DNA of 64,000 nt from Saccharopolyspora gregorii (GTDB lineage: Bacteria > Actinomycetota > Actinomycetes > Mycobacteriales > Pseudonocardiaceae): assembly GCF_024734405.1 (NCBI RefSeq), contig NZ_CP059556.1, positions 930,001-994,000 on the forward strand, in the 5' to 3' direction. This document shows, one piece after another, positions 13,805-52,526 of this stretch (the first letter of the stretch is position 1; each line of letters opens with the position of its first letter). The notes beneath the pieces are model-generated. The model did no database searches. It had not been told where the DNA came from and worked only from the letters and a program-made list of their open reading frames with translations. Both the position numbers and the translations under genes were made by a program.

Positions 13805-13850
13805 TCCAACCGCTGACCGCCTGTCCCTGAACCTGCCCGCCGGGTCGTGT

Positions 13851-14019
13851 CGTTTTCCTGTCAGCGGCGAAGCCGCTGAGCGGCGACCACCAGAGCAACG
13901 GGACCACCCGCGGGTTCTCAGCTGCTTCCTCGCGAGGACAGCGTTTTCGCATGTGGCGGAGCCACCTGCGAAAACGATCCCGCAGCGAGGAAGCAGCTGA
14001 GGTTCCGCCACCCGAGAAC
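13851..14019 (-). repeat. Interspersed intergenic repeat, copy A, with nested inverted repeats
   Basis: This segment, read on the minus strand, matches 53479-53573 over most of its length (GGTGGCGGAACCTCAGC, GAGAACCCGC, GGTGGTCGCCGCTCA, CGGCTTCGCCGCTG). It contains outer perfect 17-base arms (13917-13933 and 13985-14001), inner 10-base arms (13942-13951 and 13967-13976) and a 5-base innermost hairpin, so it can fold into a long stem. The inner part is absent from copy B. Confidence 0.75.
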
Positions 14020-46830: not shown

Positions 46831-48015
46831 GTGGACCACCGCACTCGCACTCCCGTCGTAGGCATGATCGGTGGTGGGCAGCTCGCACGGATGACCCACC
46901 AGGCCGCGATCCCGCTGGGCCAGTCCCTCAAGGTGCTGGCCGTCTCGCCGCAGGACCCGGCGGCGCTGGTCGCGCCGGACGTGCAGCTCGGCGAGCACAC
47001 CGACCTCGACGCGCTGCGCACCTTCGCGGAAGGCTGCGACGCGGTCACCTTCGACCACGAGCACGTGCCCGGCGAGCACCTGCGCGAACTCGTCGCCGCC
47101 GGGGTCGCCGTGCACCCCGGGCCGGACGCGCTGCTGCACGCCCAGGACAAGCTGGTGATGCGCCGCAAGCTCGCCGGGCTCGGCTTGCCGGTACCGCCGT
47201 ACGCCGAGGTCACCGAGGTCGCGCAGGCGCTGGAGTTCGGCGCCGAGCACGGCTGGCCGTGCGTGCTCAAGACCGCCCGCGGCGGCTACGACGGCCGGGG
47301 CGTGTGGACGCTGAACACCCCGGAGAGCGCCGAGCGCGTCGTCGGCGAACTCCTCGACGGCGGGGCGCCGCTGCTCGTCGAGCAGCGGGTGCCGCTGCGC
47401 CGCGAGCTCGCCGCGCTCGTCGCGCGCTCCCCGTTCGGGCAAGGCGCCGCCTGGCCGCTGGTGGAGACCGTGCAGCAGGACGGCATCTGCGTGCAGGTGC
47501 TCGCCCCCGCCCCGGACGCCTCGGAGGAACTGCGGAACGAGGCGCAGAACCTGGCGCTGCACATCGCCGAGGCCCTCGGCGTCGTCGGCGTGCTCGCGGT
47601 GGAGCTGTTCGAGACCGACGACGGGCTCGTGATCAACGAGCTGGCGATGCGGCCGCACAACTCCGGGCACTTCAGCATCGAAGGCGCCCGCACCTCGCAG
47701 TTCGAGCAGCACCTGCGCGCCGTGCTGGACTACCCGCTGGGCAGCACCGAGCTCACCGCGCCCGCCGTGGTGATGGCGAACGTGCTCGGCGCGCCCACCG
47801 AACCGGCGATGGGCGTGGACGAGCGGACGCACCACCTGTTCGCCCGGTTCCCGCACGCCAAGGTGCACCTCTACGGCAAGGCCGAGCGGCCCGGGCGCAA
47901 GGTCGGCCACGTCACCGTCCTCGGCGACGACATGGCCGCCACCCGCCGCGAGGCGGAACTGGCCGCGCACTTCCTCTCCACCGGGGAATGGGCCGACGGC
48001 CACCCGATCCACTGA
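46831..48015 (+). CDS. purK: N5-carboxyaminoimidazole ribonucleotide synthase
   Basis: 394 aa ATP-grasp enzyme that carboxylates AIR to N5-CAIR in purine synthesis. Motifs: VVGMIGGGQLARM at the N-terminus, CDAVTFDHEHVP, VLKTARGGYDGRGVW (ATP-grasp lid), LVEQRVPLRRELAALVARS, VVGVLAVELFETDDGLVINE and AMRPHNSGHFSIEGARTSQFEQ (metal-binding Glu/Asn region). GTG 46831 is probably leaderless. purE follows 133 bases later in the same direction, forming the usual pair. Confidence 0.96.
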   Translation: MDHRTRTPVVGMIGGGQLARMTHQAAIPLGQSLKVLAVSPQDPAALVAPDVQLGEHTDLDALRTFAEGCDAVTFDHEHVPGEHLRELVAAGVAVHPGPDALLHAQDKLVMRRKLAGLGLPVPPYAEVTEVAQALEFGAEHGWPCVLKTARGGYDGRGVWTLNTPESAERVVGELLDGGAPLLVEQRVPLRRELAALVARSPFGQGAAWPLVETVQQDGICVQVLAPAPDASEELRNEAQNLALHIAEALGVVGVLAVELFETDDGLVINELAMRPHNSGHFSIEGARTSQFEQHLRAVLDYPLGSTELTAPAVVMANVLGAPTEPAMGVDERTHHLFARFPHAKVHLYGKAERPGRKVGHVTVLGDDMAATRREAELAAHFLSTGEWADGHPIH

Positions 48016-48148
48016 CACCCGCCTCGGCGAGCACCGGGGGTGCGGGGCGGCTGCCCCGCGGACGTGATGGGCTGGACGGCGGGCGGTCGCTCGCCGCGAC
48101 GACGAGCAGGAGCACCGGGCGCGGGCGCCCGGCGGGGAGGAACCGGAG

Positions 48149-48661
48149 ATGGCGCAGGAACGGCCGCTGGTCGGCGTGGTCATGGGCAGCGACTCGGACT
48201 GGCCGGTGATGGAGGCCGCGGGGCAGGCCCTCGCCGAGTTCGACGTGCCGTTCGAGGCCGGCGTGTACTCGGCGCACCGCACCCCGCAGCGGATGCTGGA
48301 CTACGCCCGCGACGCCGCCGACCGCGGCCTGCGCGTGATCATCGCCGGCGCCGGGGGAGCGGCGCACCTGCCGGGCATGGTGGCGTCCGCGACCGTGCTG
48401 CCGGTGATCGGCGTGCCGGTGCCGCTCAAGCACCTGGACGGCATGGACTCGCTGCTGTCGATCGTGCAGATGCCCGCCGGGGTGCCGGTGGCGACCGTCT
48501 CGGTCGGCGGGGCGCGCAACGCGGGACTGCTGGCGGTGCGCACCCTCGCCGCGGACTCCGGTGAGCTGGGCACCCGGTTGCGCGCGGCGATGGCGCGCTT
48601 CCAGGAAGGCCTGGAGAGCATGGTCCACGACAAGCACGAGGCGCTGCAGGCGCGCCTCTGA
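48149..48661 (+). CDS. purE: N5-CAIR mutase
   Basis: 170 aa octameric enzyme moving the carboxyl group of N5-CAIR to make CAIR. The class I signature is complete: [25 protein letters not shown] with the catalytic His, [17 protein letters not shown] and [23 protein letters not shown] 48149 follows GGAGGAACCGGAG. Downstream, converging, lies the lasso-like operon; the 54 bases between stops show no strong hairpin. Confidence 0.96.
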
Positions 48662-48715
48662 CGGACCCGTGCGGCGGGACGTCGCCGCCCGCCGCCGCGG
48701 TGCCGCCCGGCGGAC

Positions 48716-48979
48716 TCACCTGGTGGATTCCAGCAGGGCCGCGCCGCGGAGGCGTTCGACGATGGTGGCGACATCGTGGCGGGCCACCTCCGCCGGGATG
48801 CGGTGGCGGTCGGCGAGCTCGCCCGCGATGCGGTCCGCGTCCTGCCCGATCAGCAGGCCGCGCAGCACCTGGGTGCCGGTGCGGTTGAGCAGCCAGCGCC
48901 GCCCGGTGCGCTCGTCGCGCAGCACCGTCCCGTCGCCGAGGTCGGTGGGGTCGACGTCAGGACGCAGTCGCAGGTGCAT
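48716..48979 (-). CDS. PqqD-like RiPP recognition protein (lasso B1-type)
   Basis: 87 aa PqqD-family protein, the fold that binds RiPP leader peptides and hands them to modifying enzymes. The winged-helix pattern is seen in LRLRPDVDPTDLGDGTVLRD, RTGRRWLLNRTGTQVL and the last helix DVATIVERLRGAALLEST. Its start overlaps the end of the cyclase gene by 23 bases. In lasso peptide loci the next gene is normally the B2 transglutaminase-fold leader peptidase; here the operon ends and purE converges from the other side, so B2 is missing. It is the last gene of a three-gene operon with precursor and cyclase. Confidence 0.85.
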   Translation of the reverse strand: MHLRLRPDVDPTDLGDGTVLRDERTGRRWLLNRTGTQVLRGLLIGQDADRIAGELADRHRIPAEVARHDVATIVERLRGAALLESTR

Positions 48980-50803
48980 CGGTCCTCCCGGTGGAGCCCT
49001 GGGTGACGCCGCGCAGCCACGCCTCGCACCCCAGCAGGTGTTCCAGCGCGACCAGGGTGCGCGGTTCGACGTGCGGCGCGAGCAGGTGCTTGCGCAGCAC
49101 GCCGGTGTCGACCAGTCCGTGCGCGGCGAGTTCCGAGTCGGTGAACAGCGCCAGGACGGCGCCGCGGTGGCGGCGCAACCCGATGTGCACGTCCGCCCCG
49201 ACCCCGGCGTCCGGCCGGGGAGCGGGGACGGGCCGCTGCAGCACCGCGTCCGGTGCGGTGCCGCGGGCGGCTTCGGCCAGCAGCGGCTTGTACCGCCAGG
49301 GTGACGCCCGTTCGGCCGGGCGTACCGCGATCGCCGCCTCCACCACCCGGTCGTCGTAGTAGGGCAGTTCCAGCCGCACCCCGGCCGCCGCGTACCGCCG
49401 GACCAGCCGCCGGTACCCGGGTGCCGCGGTGCGCAGCGCGGTGAGCAGCTGGTGCCTGCCGCGGTCGGGCGCGAGCGGTTCGGCCTCGGTGGCCGCGGTG
49501 CGCAGCTCGGCGCGGGCGGCGGCCACCGCGTCGGCGCTCGCCCACGGCGCCGCGCGCAGCGGGGCGGGGCCCCAGTCCAGCGCGGTGTGGTGCCGCGGCC
49601 CGTTCGGCGCGGTGAGCCGGTCGGACTGCTCCCGCCACCAGTGCGCCACGTCGTGCGCGGCCAGCAGCGCCGCCATCGTCGGCAGCAGCGGCCAGCGGTG
49701 CAGCGACCGGTATCCGCGCAGTTGCCGGATCGCTTTCACCGGGCGTTGCCGCAGCAGCGAATGCAGATGTCCGGGCGGGCCGCCGAAGATTTCATCTCCG
49801 CCGAATCCGGCGAGCTGCCGCTGCACGCCGTGCTCGGCGAGCAGTTCCGCGCACCGGCCCGTCGCGGCGAGTTCCCGGAAAAGCGGAATGGGTTCTTCGT
49901 GGTCGGTGAGCGCTCCCGGGTCCTCGAATGCGGAGGGGAGTTCTCGCGGATCCAGCACGAGGTGCGTGCCGTCCGGCAATTGCCGCGCGCATTCGGCGGC
50001 GAACCGGTTCTCCCCGTTCTCGCGGTCGTTTTCCCGGCGGTTCAGCGTGACGAGCTCGGGTTCGTGCCGCGCGGTGAGGAAGCACAGCGCGGTGGAATCC
50101 ATCCCGCCCGAGAGGTCGGCGCCGGTGCGCCCGGTCCCGGACCGGATCGCGGTGTCGAGCGCCTCCCGGGTGGCGCGGGCGCCGCGGCGCAGCGCCACGT
50201 CCGGTTCCGGCGGCCGCCACCACCGCACCTCCCGGGCCCGCTCGGCGGCGAGCCGCAGGTACGAGTCGGGGGCAGCGCCCGCACCCCGGACCACGCGGTG
50301 CGCCGGTCCAGCGGCGGCCCGGTCGGTCCGACCGCCACCCGCAGCGCCAGCGCCTGCTCGTCGATGCCCGCGCCGGCCAGCTCGGCGAGCAGGTCGGCGC
50401 GATCACCGGCGATCGGGACGCCGCCGACCCGGGTGTGGAACACCTGCCGCAGCCCGGAGATCCCGCCCTGCACCCGGACCTCGCCGCGCACCGAGGCGGC
50501 CAAGTGCACCCCGCCGGGCAGCCGGTGCAGCACCGCGTCCAGGTCGGCGACCGAGCGCAGCCCGTGCACGATCGACGCGAGCCGGGTCGCGTCGATCGGG
50601 CAGGACCCCAGCAGCGCCACCCGGACCGGCCCGAGCGCGACCGGGACGAGGTCGTCGGTGCGGAAGCGGCCGACCAGCCAGGGGTTCCCGGAATCGTGGC
50701 GGAGCACGATCCGCCCCTGCGCCGGGAATCGGTCGACGACGTTCTTCAATCCCGGCACGTCGGGCAGTACGACCCAACCGGAGTGGTGCTGGAGCATGCT
50801 CAT
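48957..50803 (-). CDS. Lasso-type macrolactam synthetase (asparagine-synthase-like), frame broken
   Basis: About 615 aa if repaired. The first part (ATG 50803) is the glutaminase-like domain, with WLVGRF, LPGGVHLAASV, RVGGVPIAGDRADLLAEL and WSGVRALPP. The second part is the ATP-dependent synthetase: SYLRLAAERAREV, the PP-loop LSGGMDSTALCFL, LAGFGGDEIFGG and LPYYDDRVVEAAIAV. This is the lasso cyclase architecture, closing an amide between the core N-terminus and an Asp/Glu. The two halves are in different frames, joining at a five-G run (50268-50272); one extra base would restore the usual LPPDSYLRL. It is either a real frameshift or a sequence error. It is coupled by ATGA to the precursor gene upstream and overlaps the PqqD-like gene downstream. 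Confidence 0.8.
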
Positions 50804-50928
50804 TCCGTTCTCGGATCGGTGCGCGTCGCGGGGTAGGAGGAAAATGGTGCGGTGACCGGCTCGGGTAATTCCACGATTTCCACGAGCGTGGGAGTTTCGT
50901 AGCCGTCGGCAGCGGTCTGCTCGTCCAT
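50800..50928 (-). CDS. Lasso-like RiPP precursor peptide
   Basis: 42 aa from ATG 50928, with GGAGG five bases upstream. It contains YETPTL, the YxxPxL leader motif that lasso B1/PqqD proteins recognise, followed by an acidic stretch and a Thr (residue 26) near the expected cleavage site. The C-terminal 15 residues, from Pro28, contain Ser-Ser-Tyr-Pro and end in Arg-Thr-Glu. No Asp/Glu falls at position 7-9 of a core starting after Thr26-Ala27; Asp38 would be position 11. The stop overlaps the cyclase ATG (ATGA). A longer frame upstream to 51003 lacks a ribosome site. The product is not predictable with confidence. Confidence 0.75.
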   Translation of the reverse strand: MDEQTAADGYETPTLVEIVELPEPVTAPFSSYPATRTDPRTE

Positions 50929-50994
50929 GAATGCCTCCGCAGTGGTGTGCAGGCACGGATTCATGCCGACGATCACACTGCTAGGAGCCCGGGT

Positions 50995-51009
50995 GGGGCA
51001 CAATGCCCC
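50995..51009. repeat. Short inverted repeat upstream of the lasso-like operon
   Basis: GGGGCA-CAA-TGCCCC, a six-base perfect stem, 67 bases before the precursor start. ACAATGCCCC recurs at 51057-51066. The promoter of the operon should be in 50929-51118; no clear -35/-10 was identified. Confidence 0.4.
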
Positions 51010-51118
51010 CCGGGTGATGATGACCCCATTCGGTGAAGAAAGTACTAGTCACGTAACAATGCCCCGCGCGAAATGCGTCGGGACCGTCTCCGCGGTGTCG
51101 CGGCCGGGCCGCGCGGTC

Positions 51119-51901
51119 TCAGCCCAGGCGGTGCGCCAGCACCGCTTCGTGGGCCGTCCCGACCGGTCCGCGCTCGTCGAAGAGCCGGGCGCGGGTGACG
51201 CCGACGCCGGTGGGTTCGACGTCGCGCGCCATCTCCATCCCGAGCCATTCGCCGGCGGGCTCCCGGTGCAGGTACAGCGTGATGTCGCTGTTGATCCACG
51301 GGCCGAACAGCGAGCCGACGGGACTGCCCGCGCTGATGCAGTCGACGAGGACGGCGACCTGGCTCAGCCTGCTGGTCGGTTCGTCGGGCAGCAGCGGCAG
51401 CGGCAGCCGCATCCACGCCTGGGCAGGGCCGCCGGCGAGCTGGTCGCGGACCCAGCGGACCTGGACCACGTCGTGCACTCCCCAGCGCAGCCCGAGTTCG
51501 GCGGGCAGCAGCGAGGAGTCCGGCAGGCCCTGCGGTCCGGGGAACGGGGTGGGTTCGGGCGCGTGGTCGCCGTCGACCCCGCTGCGGCGCAGCACCTGGG
51601 CGGTGGCGCGGGTGACCTCGGTGCCGTCCTGGGCGAGGGTGACCTCGAACACGCGCAACCGCTTGCCGGCCCGGACGGTGCGGGTGGTGGCGGTGATCCC
51701 GGTGCGGGGGACGGGGCGGTGCAGGTCGACGGTGAGCCGGGCGACGAACAGGTCGGGTTCGTCGAGGGCCTGCTCGACGGCGCGGGCGACGAGTCCGGCG
51801 ACGGGCCCGCCGCCGGTGAGCTCGCCCCACGGGTTGCCCGCGGCTTCGGTGGGCACGAACAGGTCGCCTTCGCGGCGGAACAGGCTCTCGTCTCGGCGCA
51901 C
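51119..51901 (-). CDS. Double-hotdog acyl-CoA thioesterase family protein
   Basis: 260 aa. Two hotdog halves are visible: an N-terminal one with NPWGELTGGGPVAGLVARAV and LTVDLHRPVPRTGITATTRT, and a C-terminal one with SQVAVLVDCISAGSPVG, WINSDITLYLHREPAGEWLG and GVTRARLFDERGPVGTAHEA. This matches the TesB-like thioesterase family that hydrolyses acyl-CoA esters in the cytosol. GTG 51901 lies six bases after a TAGCAT box. It is not part of the RiPP operon: a promoter gap separates them. Chain-length preference unknown. Confidence 0.83.
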   Translation of the reverse strand: MRRDESLFRREGDLFVPTEAAGNPWGELTGGGPVAGLVARAVEQALDEPDLFVARLTVDLHRPVPRTGITATTRTVRAGKRLRVFEVTLAQDGTEVTRATAQVLRRSGVDGDHAPEPTPFPGPQGLPDSSLLPAELGLRWGVHDVVQVRWVRDQLAGGPAQAWMRLPLPLLPDEPTSRLSQVAVLVDCISAGSPVGSLFGPWINSDITLYLHREPAGEWLGMEMARDVEPTGVGVTRARLFDERGPVGTAHEAVLAHRLG

Positions 51902-51907
51902 GCCCGG

Positions 51908-51913
51908 ATGCTA
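51908..51913 (-). promoter_or_regulatory. -10-like TAGCAT before the thioesterase
   Basis: TAGCAT on the minus strand, six bases from GTG 51901; no ribosome site. Confidence 0.45.
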
Positions 51914-52094
51914 CTCAGCAGTATCTTACTTTGGGTAGGTCTGACGGCTGGGTCGTCCGGGCGCGTTCGGGTTCGGTCGTCCGGCGCAGCGGGGGTGCGG
52001 GTTCCGTGACCAGTTTCCCATTCGGCCTTTTATTTGAAGGTTCATGTATATGCTGGGCGGTCGGAACCCCCGTGCCCCCCCGAAAGGTGAGCTG

Positions 52095-52526
52095 ATGCAG
52101 CACCGTCTCCGCGACGTCACGATCCTGCTGGCCAGGTTGGTCGTCGGCGTGACCTTCGTCTTGCACGCCTACCAGAAGTTCGTGCTCAACGGCATCTCCG
52201 GCGTCGGCGCCGGATTCGAGCAGATGGGCATCCCGATGCCCGTCGTCGCGGCCGGGTTCACCGCCACCGTCGAACTGCTCGGCGGGCTCGCGCTCGTCCT
52301 CGGCGTGCTGATGCCCGTGGCGGGCGTGCTGCTCGCCGCCGTGATGCTCGGCGCGCTCGTCACCGCGCACGCGAGCGCCGGCTTCTTCGCCACCGACGGC
52401 GGCTTCGAATACGTGCTGGTGCTCGCCGCGACGAGCCTCGCGCTCGGCTTCAGCGGGCCCAAGTACACCGTGCAGGCGCTGTTCACCGGCGGCGCGCAGG
52501 CCGAACGCGCCGAGGTCGACGCCTGA
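52095..52526 (+). CDS. DoxX-family membrane protein
   Basis: 143 aa with four predicted transmembrane helices (ILLARLVVGVTFVLHAYQKF, VVAAGFTATVELLGGLALVL, MPVAGVLLAAVMLGALVTAH, YVLVLAATSLALGFSG). The first holds the DoxX pattern of Arg, His and Lys facing the membrane core, and GGLALVLGVLMPVAG is a family hallmark. ATG 52095 is preceded by AAAGGTGA six bases upstream. DoxX proteins take part in redox or membrane thiol stress responses in mycobacteria; the exact activity here is not known. It stands alone. Confidence 0.88.
   Translation: MQHRLRDVTILLARLVVGVTFVLHAYQKFVLNGISGVGAGFEQMGIPMPVVAAGFTATVELLGGLALVLGVLMPVAGVLLAAVMLGALVTAHASAGFFATDGGFEYVLVLAATSLALGFSGPKYTVQALFTGGAQAERAEVDA

What the first reader, a model, noticed from the sequence alone, without database searches (positions are those of the whole stretch)
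48716..50928. Lasso-peptide-like operon with no B2 leader peptidase
The sequence shows precursor, asparagine-synthase-like cyclase and PqqD-like protein in tight overlap (ATGA, then 23 bases), the canonical A-C-B1 order of actinobacterial lasso loci. The B2 transglutaminase-fold peptidase, normally next, is absent: purE converges 54 bases after the PqqD stop. No ABC exporter is present either. Either B2 acts from elsewhere in the genome, or this is a reduced system with different chemistry, or it is decaying. It sits between backbone genes purE and the thioesterase, so it looks like an insertion.
Basis: partly seen in the sequence, partly recalled or inferred. Interest (0 to 1): 0.75.

Follow-up and report, generated by a model that had tools for sequence, protein, structure and literature searches.

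The report
Lasso-derived operon without its peptidase
Four related Saccharopolyspora-type bacteria carry a lasso-peptide gene set that lost its leader-cutting enzyme long ago, and the peptide lost the matching cut and ring positions, yet the other genes stay under selection, which suggests a different use; the copy in this genome looks freshly broken.

Summary
Precursor (A), cyclase (C) and PqqD-like B1 lie at the stated places with no B2 before purE.

Of the five other genomes held of the genus, three have the same A-C-B1 set at the same place without B2; two have A-C-B1-B2 there. Of 111 C loci surveyed outside the genus, 104 have B2 close by; the only one with B1 but no B2 ends at a contig edge. 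So B2 was most likely lost once, before four species split.

Their precursors keep the B1-binding YxxPxL but lack Thr(-2), Gly(-8), the aromatic at -6 and an acid at core 7-9. C and B1 remain under purifying selection, C keeps its ATP-site residues, and the upstream region is conserved. A B2 exists elsewhere in the window's genome (3.94 Mb, beside a ruined second lasso locus), but one sister with the intact operon shows no B2 anywhere in its draft.

Best reading: a lasso-derived operon shifted to a B2-independent use, with this genome's copy probably recently inactivated. Slow decay is a serious rival. New variant of a known kind.

The parts
50800..50928 (-). precursor A, 42 aa, MDEQ...YETPTLVEIVELPE...RTDPRTE; stop overlaps the C start (ATGA)
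   Evidence: orthologues in G003, G004, G005
50273..50803 (-). cyclase C, N-terminal part in frame with the start codon
   Evidence: 82% identical to the G003 copy
50268..50272 (-). run of C one base short in an alignment with five relatives: frame break in C
48957..50267 (-). cyclase C, rest (Asn_synthase domain with SGGMDST and GGDE) in the other frame, no stops
   Evidence: (PF00733 E 5.6e-34)
48716..48979 (-). B1, PqqD-like leader-binding protein (RRE)
   Evidence: NF033530 71.8 bits over cut-off 70; PF05402
50929..51077 (-). conserved upstream region (promoter/5' region) with short inverted repeats, e.g. at 50952-50967
   Evidence: 127/153 identical to G003 against 228/320 at fourfold sites of C
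48662..48715 (.). short gap to convergent purE where B2 stands in G001/G002; hairpin strong in G003-G005, weak here

Best explanation
It is a lasso-peptide operon whose ancestor lost B2, and with it the parts of the precursor that go with B2 and with ring closure at positions 7-9, before four Saccharopolyspora-type species split. B1 still captures the leader through YxxPxL and hands the peptide to C, an ATP-dependent asparagine-synthetase-like ligase, which most likely still forms an amide on it, without B2. The acceptor may be the Asp that lies five residues from the C-terminus in all six precursors of the genus; the amine would come from cutting by an ordinary protease or from the leader's own N-terminus. 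In the window's own genome the C frame is broken, probably recently. Shown: absence of B2, absence of the precursor features, retained selection on C and B1, intact ATP-site residues, conserved upstream region. Inferred: that C still acts on A, the acceptor residue, that no B2 step is used.
Against: C is frame-broken in the window's genome and in G004 (the G004 assembly looks rich in indels: 4 of 10 genes with split matches in that stretch, C itself and purK among them, and 1 of 11 at another locus). The C-terminal half of A changes almost freely (G003-G004 over the whole of A: 2 synonymous, 6 nonsynonymous). No product, no exporter seen, no proof that C still uses A. The truncated C of the second lasso locus in G000 has a ratio just as low, so such ratios cannot see a recent death. 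Both halves of the genus have lost Thr(-2), which fits a loss of function older than the loss of B2.
Confidence: 0.45

Rival explanations
1. Slow decay: the operon lost its lasso function in the genus ancestor and is dying piece by piece (Thr(-2) gone in all six precursors, B2 gone in four species, catalytic Asp of C changed to Glu in the other two, frame breaks in two).
For: C frame break in G000, whose assembly shows few others (3 of 135 G003 genes flagged over 264 kb: C, one whose break lies before the gene, one not checked); G001/G002 C has Glu at both ATP-site Asp positions that are Asp in 109 and 110 of 110 others; free change in the core; the second lasso locus of G000 is ruined too.
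Against: The four species are separated by dS of up to about 0.5 in C, yet C is intact over 616 codons in G003 and G005 and no stop interrupts the parts in G000 and G004 (neutral simulation 2.6-5.6 stops a lineage, P(0) 0.007-0.07); low pN/pS; conserved upstream region.
Confidence: 0.36
2. Ordinary lasso biosynthesis with B2 acting in trans from another locus.
For: G000, G003 and G004 each have B2 at another lasso locus; in G000 that locus kept open B1 and B2 frames while its A and most of C are gone; elsewhere a canonical precursor with C stands without B1/B2 (L112/L246).
Against: No B2 found in G005; the precursors lack Thr(-2) and any acid at 7-9.
Confidence: 0.1
3. The frame break in C is a one-off assembly error and the window's copy is intact like that of G003/G005 (this concerns the window's copy only and can hold together with any of the others).
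For: One base in a homopolymer run; both flanks of the break show the same constraint.
Against: The rest of the assembly shows few such breaks.
Confidence: 0.35
4. C and B1 now serve another precursor or substrate, and A is kept for its leader or as the ribosome entry to C.
For: The leader and the RTDPRxE end, next to the C start, are the conserved parts of A.
Against: No second precursor of the canonical kind was found in G005 or G000 (that search also missed the odd precursors of the second locus, so it is not sensitive).
Confidence: 0.09

Closest known systems
Actinobacterial lasso-peptide clusters (A-C-B1-B2; e.g. L039, L041, L068 here)
   Same: gene order, B1, C, YxxPxL leader
   Different: no B2; precursor lacks Thr(-2), Gly(-8), aromatic(-6) and an acid at core 7-9
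Pseudomycoidin, a lasso peptide formed without leader and leader peptidase (only the title seen, in reference lists of PMC13352647, PMC10885120 and PMC13381572; paper not held)
   Same: to judge by the title, cyclisation without the peptidase is possible
   Different: there, to judge by the title, a laboratory result; here B2 is lost in nature and the core is changed
Linear polyphosphorylated peptides, LPP (PMC13381572, passages)
   Same: lasso-type RRE and YxxP leader put to another use
   Different: LPP clusters lack the cyclase and have a signal-peptidase-like peptidase; here the cyclase stays and no peptidase is seen
Ile/Val(-2) lasso precursors (PMC10368454, abstract and passages)
   Same: position -2 is not Thr
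   Different: the one studied there, BsfA, has B2, Gly1 and Asp8

Membership tests
lasso peptide biosynthetic cluster | discrete B1 (RRE) of the lasso type | tested here: met
   NF033530 71.8 bits against cut-off 70; G003 copy 80.4
lasso peptide biosynthetic cluster | asparagine-synthetase-like cyclase with intact ATP site | tested here: inconclusive
   residues kept, fold right for the G003 copy, but the window's frame is broken; NF033561 228 bits for G003, under its cut-off of 300
lasso peptide biosynthetic cluster | B2 leader peptidase in the cluster | tested here: not met
lasso peptide biosynthetic cluster | leader motif YxxPxL | tested here: met
   motif as given in PMC13381572 and PMC10368454 (passages)
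lasso peptide biosynthetic cluster | Thr (rarely Ile/Val/Ala) at -2 | tested here: not met
   Ser in three; Val in the window copy, which alone would be among the known exceptions
lasso peptide biosynthetic cluster | Asp/Glu at core position 7-9 | tested here: not met
   acids at 12/13 and 16/17 in the standard register; only a shifted start would give an acid at 8 or 9
lasso peptide biosynthetic cluster | threaded product | not testable with these tools
   needs mass spectrometry and NMR
LPP family | no cyclase, SpI-like peptidase | tested here: not met
   C is present; the peptidase was not searched for

The most novel reading that the evidence does not exclude
A natural B2-free pathway: B1 and C act on a precursor redesigned so that no lasso peptidase is needed, and C joins the Asp five residues from the C-terminus (present in all six precursors of the genus) to an amine of the peptide. 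If an ordinary protease cuts so that Ser/Thr is residue 1, this would be an 8-residue ring with a 4-residue tail, probably too short to thread: a branched cyclic peptide made by a lasso cyclase.
Probability: 0.22. Interest if true: 0.75.

Novelty: new variant of a known kind. Interest (0 to 1): 0.5.

Why it matters
Leader removal and ring closure are described as coupled in lasso biosynthesis, with Thr(-2) called invariant (PMC10885120, passages). A clade in which B2 and those precursor features are absent together, while the cyclase and leader binder are still kept, is a natural test of whether the cyclase has uses beyond lasso closure. It also warns genome miners that an A-C-B1 hit need not be a lasso peptide.

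Tried and rejected
Frame break as part of a generally bad assembly: unlikely for G000, likely for G004 (4 of 10 and 1 of 11 genes split). For G000 a loose screen of the window flagged 5 of 41 ORFs against G003, and 3 of 45 the other way; a stricter one over 264 kb flagged 3 of 135, and 3 of 138 the other way. Besides C, one flagged place has an in-frame stop in G000 in its first part, so the break lies before the gene; one at 194 kb and those of the reverse screens were not checked; the rest I took by eye for ORFs that run past their gene. A hidden B2 in G005: PF13471 (all 47 candidates scored) and an 11-row B2 alignment at E up to 10 (150 of 208 candidates scored), nothing convincing. A second canonical precursor in the genus: one search found the six known ones, one at another lasso locus of G004 and three weak hits (E 0.7-1.5) inside long frames. 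Selection on the orphan B2 of G000 locus 2: undecidable, since the ruined C beside it has the same ratio. PDB sequence search with C: no hit. Rfam at gathering score: no hit in 47500-52500 or the whole window. An ancestral core read in another frame: none seen by eye.

Print: searches (listing 20 of 44, 20 of 46, 15 of 44, 14 of 14 and 15 of 50 papers) showed no title or abstract start on an A-C-B1 set without B2; most papers were not opened. [quoted passage not shown] The papers by Tietz 2017 and Kretsch 2023 are not held.

Full report
Anatomy. B1 passes the NCBIfam lasso chaperone model. The C-terminal part of C is an Asn_synthase domain and both parts of C match the albusnodin/ikarugamycin cyclase model below its cut-off. 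But C is in two frames: 253 codons from the start to 50042, the rest in another frame. An alignment with five relatives places a one-base gap at a C run, plus-strand 50268-50272.

Relatives. The window lies in a 6.34 Mb chromosome (G000, unnamed). Six genomes of its genus, as grouped by the genome tool, are held, itself included. All six have the operon between purE and the thioesterase. G000, G003, G004 and G005 have A-C-B1; G001 and G002 have A-C-B1-B2. C is one open frame of 616 codons in G003 and G005; G004 has a frame break at another place, but 4 of 10 genes in that stretch, C and purK among them, have split matches in G004, and 1 of 11 at another locus, so its assembly is suspect. G000 is cleaner: a strict screen flagged 3 of 135 genes over 264 kb, one of them C, one with the break before the gene, one not checked; a looser screen of the window had flagged 5 of 41. 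The break in G000 is therefore more likely real than not, but one base cannot be settled here.

B2. PF13471 finds one B2 over cut-off in G000, at 3.94 Mb. It stands after an open B1 at a second lasso locus whose A and most of C are gone and whose remaining C is out of frame. G003 has one further lasso locus and G004 two, each with B2. In G005 nothing was found by PF13471 at E 0.001, and the best hit with an 11-row B2 profile has E 0.69 (150 of 208 candidates scored). G005 is a 70-contig draft, 97% complete, but the operon's own end is closed by purE inside a contig.

Was B2 lost? I took 111 C loci outside the genus. These are mostly the best-scoring of the listed matches, not all; the genus's own loci and L067 (G005) were left out, L044 and L060 were replaced by wider stretches, and at least two pairs of loci give identical precursors and may be the same species in both collections. 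B2 lies in the fetched stretch in 104 of 111 and B1 in 102. Of the seven without B2, L098 ends at a contig edge just after B1; the other six (three tandem-C loci, L088, L096, L112) lack B1 too, also in stretches of 13-19 kb. So C without B1 and B2 does occur elsewhere, but C-B1 without B2 was seen only in this genus. In a tree of 33 C proteins the four B2-less ones are a clade (100/99), sister to G001/G002 (100/100), nested among mostly B2-bearing loci (G000 and G004 entered with the part on one side of their break). One loss is the simplest reading.

Precursor. In the register given in PMC10368454 (YxxPxL at -17 to -12; passages), 87 of 111 outside loci gave a precursor with at least two of four features. 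Of these 82 have Thr(-2), 87 Gly(-8), 85 an aromatic at -6 and 86 an acid at 7-9 (the choice by these features inflates the rates, and 24 loci gave none). The four B2-less precursors have none of the four: Ser or Val at -2, Val at -8, Leu at -6, acids only at 12/13 and 16/17. They keep Y, P and L. PMC10885120 (passages) calls Thr(-2) invariant and says it is explained by a model of RRE and peptidase on the leader; PMC10368454 reports Ile/Val exceptions and mentions predicted Ala ones. G001/G002 have Ala(-2), Ala1 and Asp8 in a 12-residue core. All six precursors have Asp five residues from the end, and in the B2-less four a start at Ser/Thr would give Asp8. That is a pattern in six sequences, two of them identical, not a test.

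Selection. By Nei-Gojobori counts, made on three parts of C that leave out the surroundings of the breaks, C differs between G003 and G005 at 33 of 1277 nonsynonymous and 55 of 490 synonymous sites (p 2.9e-12), between G000 and G003 at 174 of 1267 and 160 of 497 (p 1.6e-17); B1 behaves alike, with p from 0.03 to 7e-6. The thioesterase gives similar or slightly lower ratios, purE lower ones. All this divergence is later than the B2 loss, if that was one event. A neutral simulation on the G003 gene expects 2.6-5.6 stops in C for each lineage, P(0) 0.007-0.07; none is seen in the parts compared. The limit: the ruined C of locus 2 in G000 still shows a ratio of 0.17-0.30, so recent death is invisible. 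In A the leader is constrained and the rest changes freely. The 150 bases upstream are 127/153 identical between G000 and G003, against 228/320 at fourfold sites of C (p 0.006); G003-G004 gives 144/156 against 234/296 (p 0.0003). A strong hairpin follows B1 in G003, G004 and G005 (z -4.1 to -6.3) but is weak in G000 (z -1.9).

Place. Of 24 purE loci outside the genus (of 33 such genomes with a purE match) with about 1.5 kb on each side, none has C or B1; one has the thioesterase and one the DoxX-like ORF. The operon is an old insertion, common to the six genomes.

Verdict. B2 from elsewhere: possible in G000, G003 and G004, not in G005 as assembled, and unlikely given the precursor. Decay: likely for the window's own copy, and arguable for the genus. 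A changed system: best supported for G003 and G005. I give 0.45 to a B2-independent use kept by selection, 0.36 to slow decay, 0.1 to trans B2. No product or activity is shown.

Noticed in passing
window 13844-14015 (+): One copy of a dispersed repeat of about 170-180 bases, found while checking the insertion between B1 and purE in G003. 43, 54, 51 and 59 matches in G000, G003, G004 and G005, with only 40 of 220-479 first-look candidates scored in each. The window copy folds into one long hairpin (-95.6 kcal/mol, z -7.0) and matches no Rfam family at gathering score.
   Followed up: partly
L006 9539-10639 (G000:C1:3940538-3941638): Ruined second lasso locus of the window's genome: A and most of C gone, the C end out of frame, B1 and B2 frames open. 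In G003 and G004 the locus is whole, with a precursor ending RRRPRHILL that recalls triculamin (likeness from memory, not tested).
   Followed up: partly
L028 8016-9830 and L029 (G002, G001): C of the B2-bearing sister clusters has Glu at both ATP-site Asp positions that are otherwise almost invariant, so these complete-looking clusters may be inactive.
   Followed up: partly
L096 6010-7779 and 8439-9557: Lasso-type C without B1 or B2 beside an ORF that looks to me like a SagB-type nitroreductase (label from memory).
   Followed up: no
L247, L248, L249: Tandem pairs of lasso-type C genes without B1 or B2 in 16 kb, in three genomes.
   Followed up: no
L112/L246 (G072): Canonical precursor (Thr(-2), acid at 7-9) with C, but no B1 or B2 in 19 kb; the genome has other lasso C loci, so B proteins may act in trans.
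   Followed up: no
window 50952-50967 and G003/G004/G005 equivalents: Inverted repeat upstream of A (CGGCATG-AATC-CATGCCG in G003 and G005) whose two arms change together in G004.
   Followed up: no
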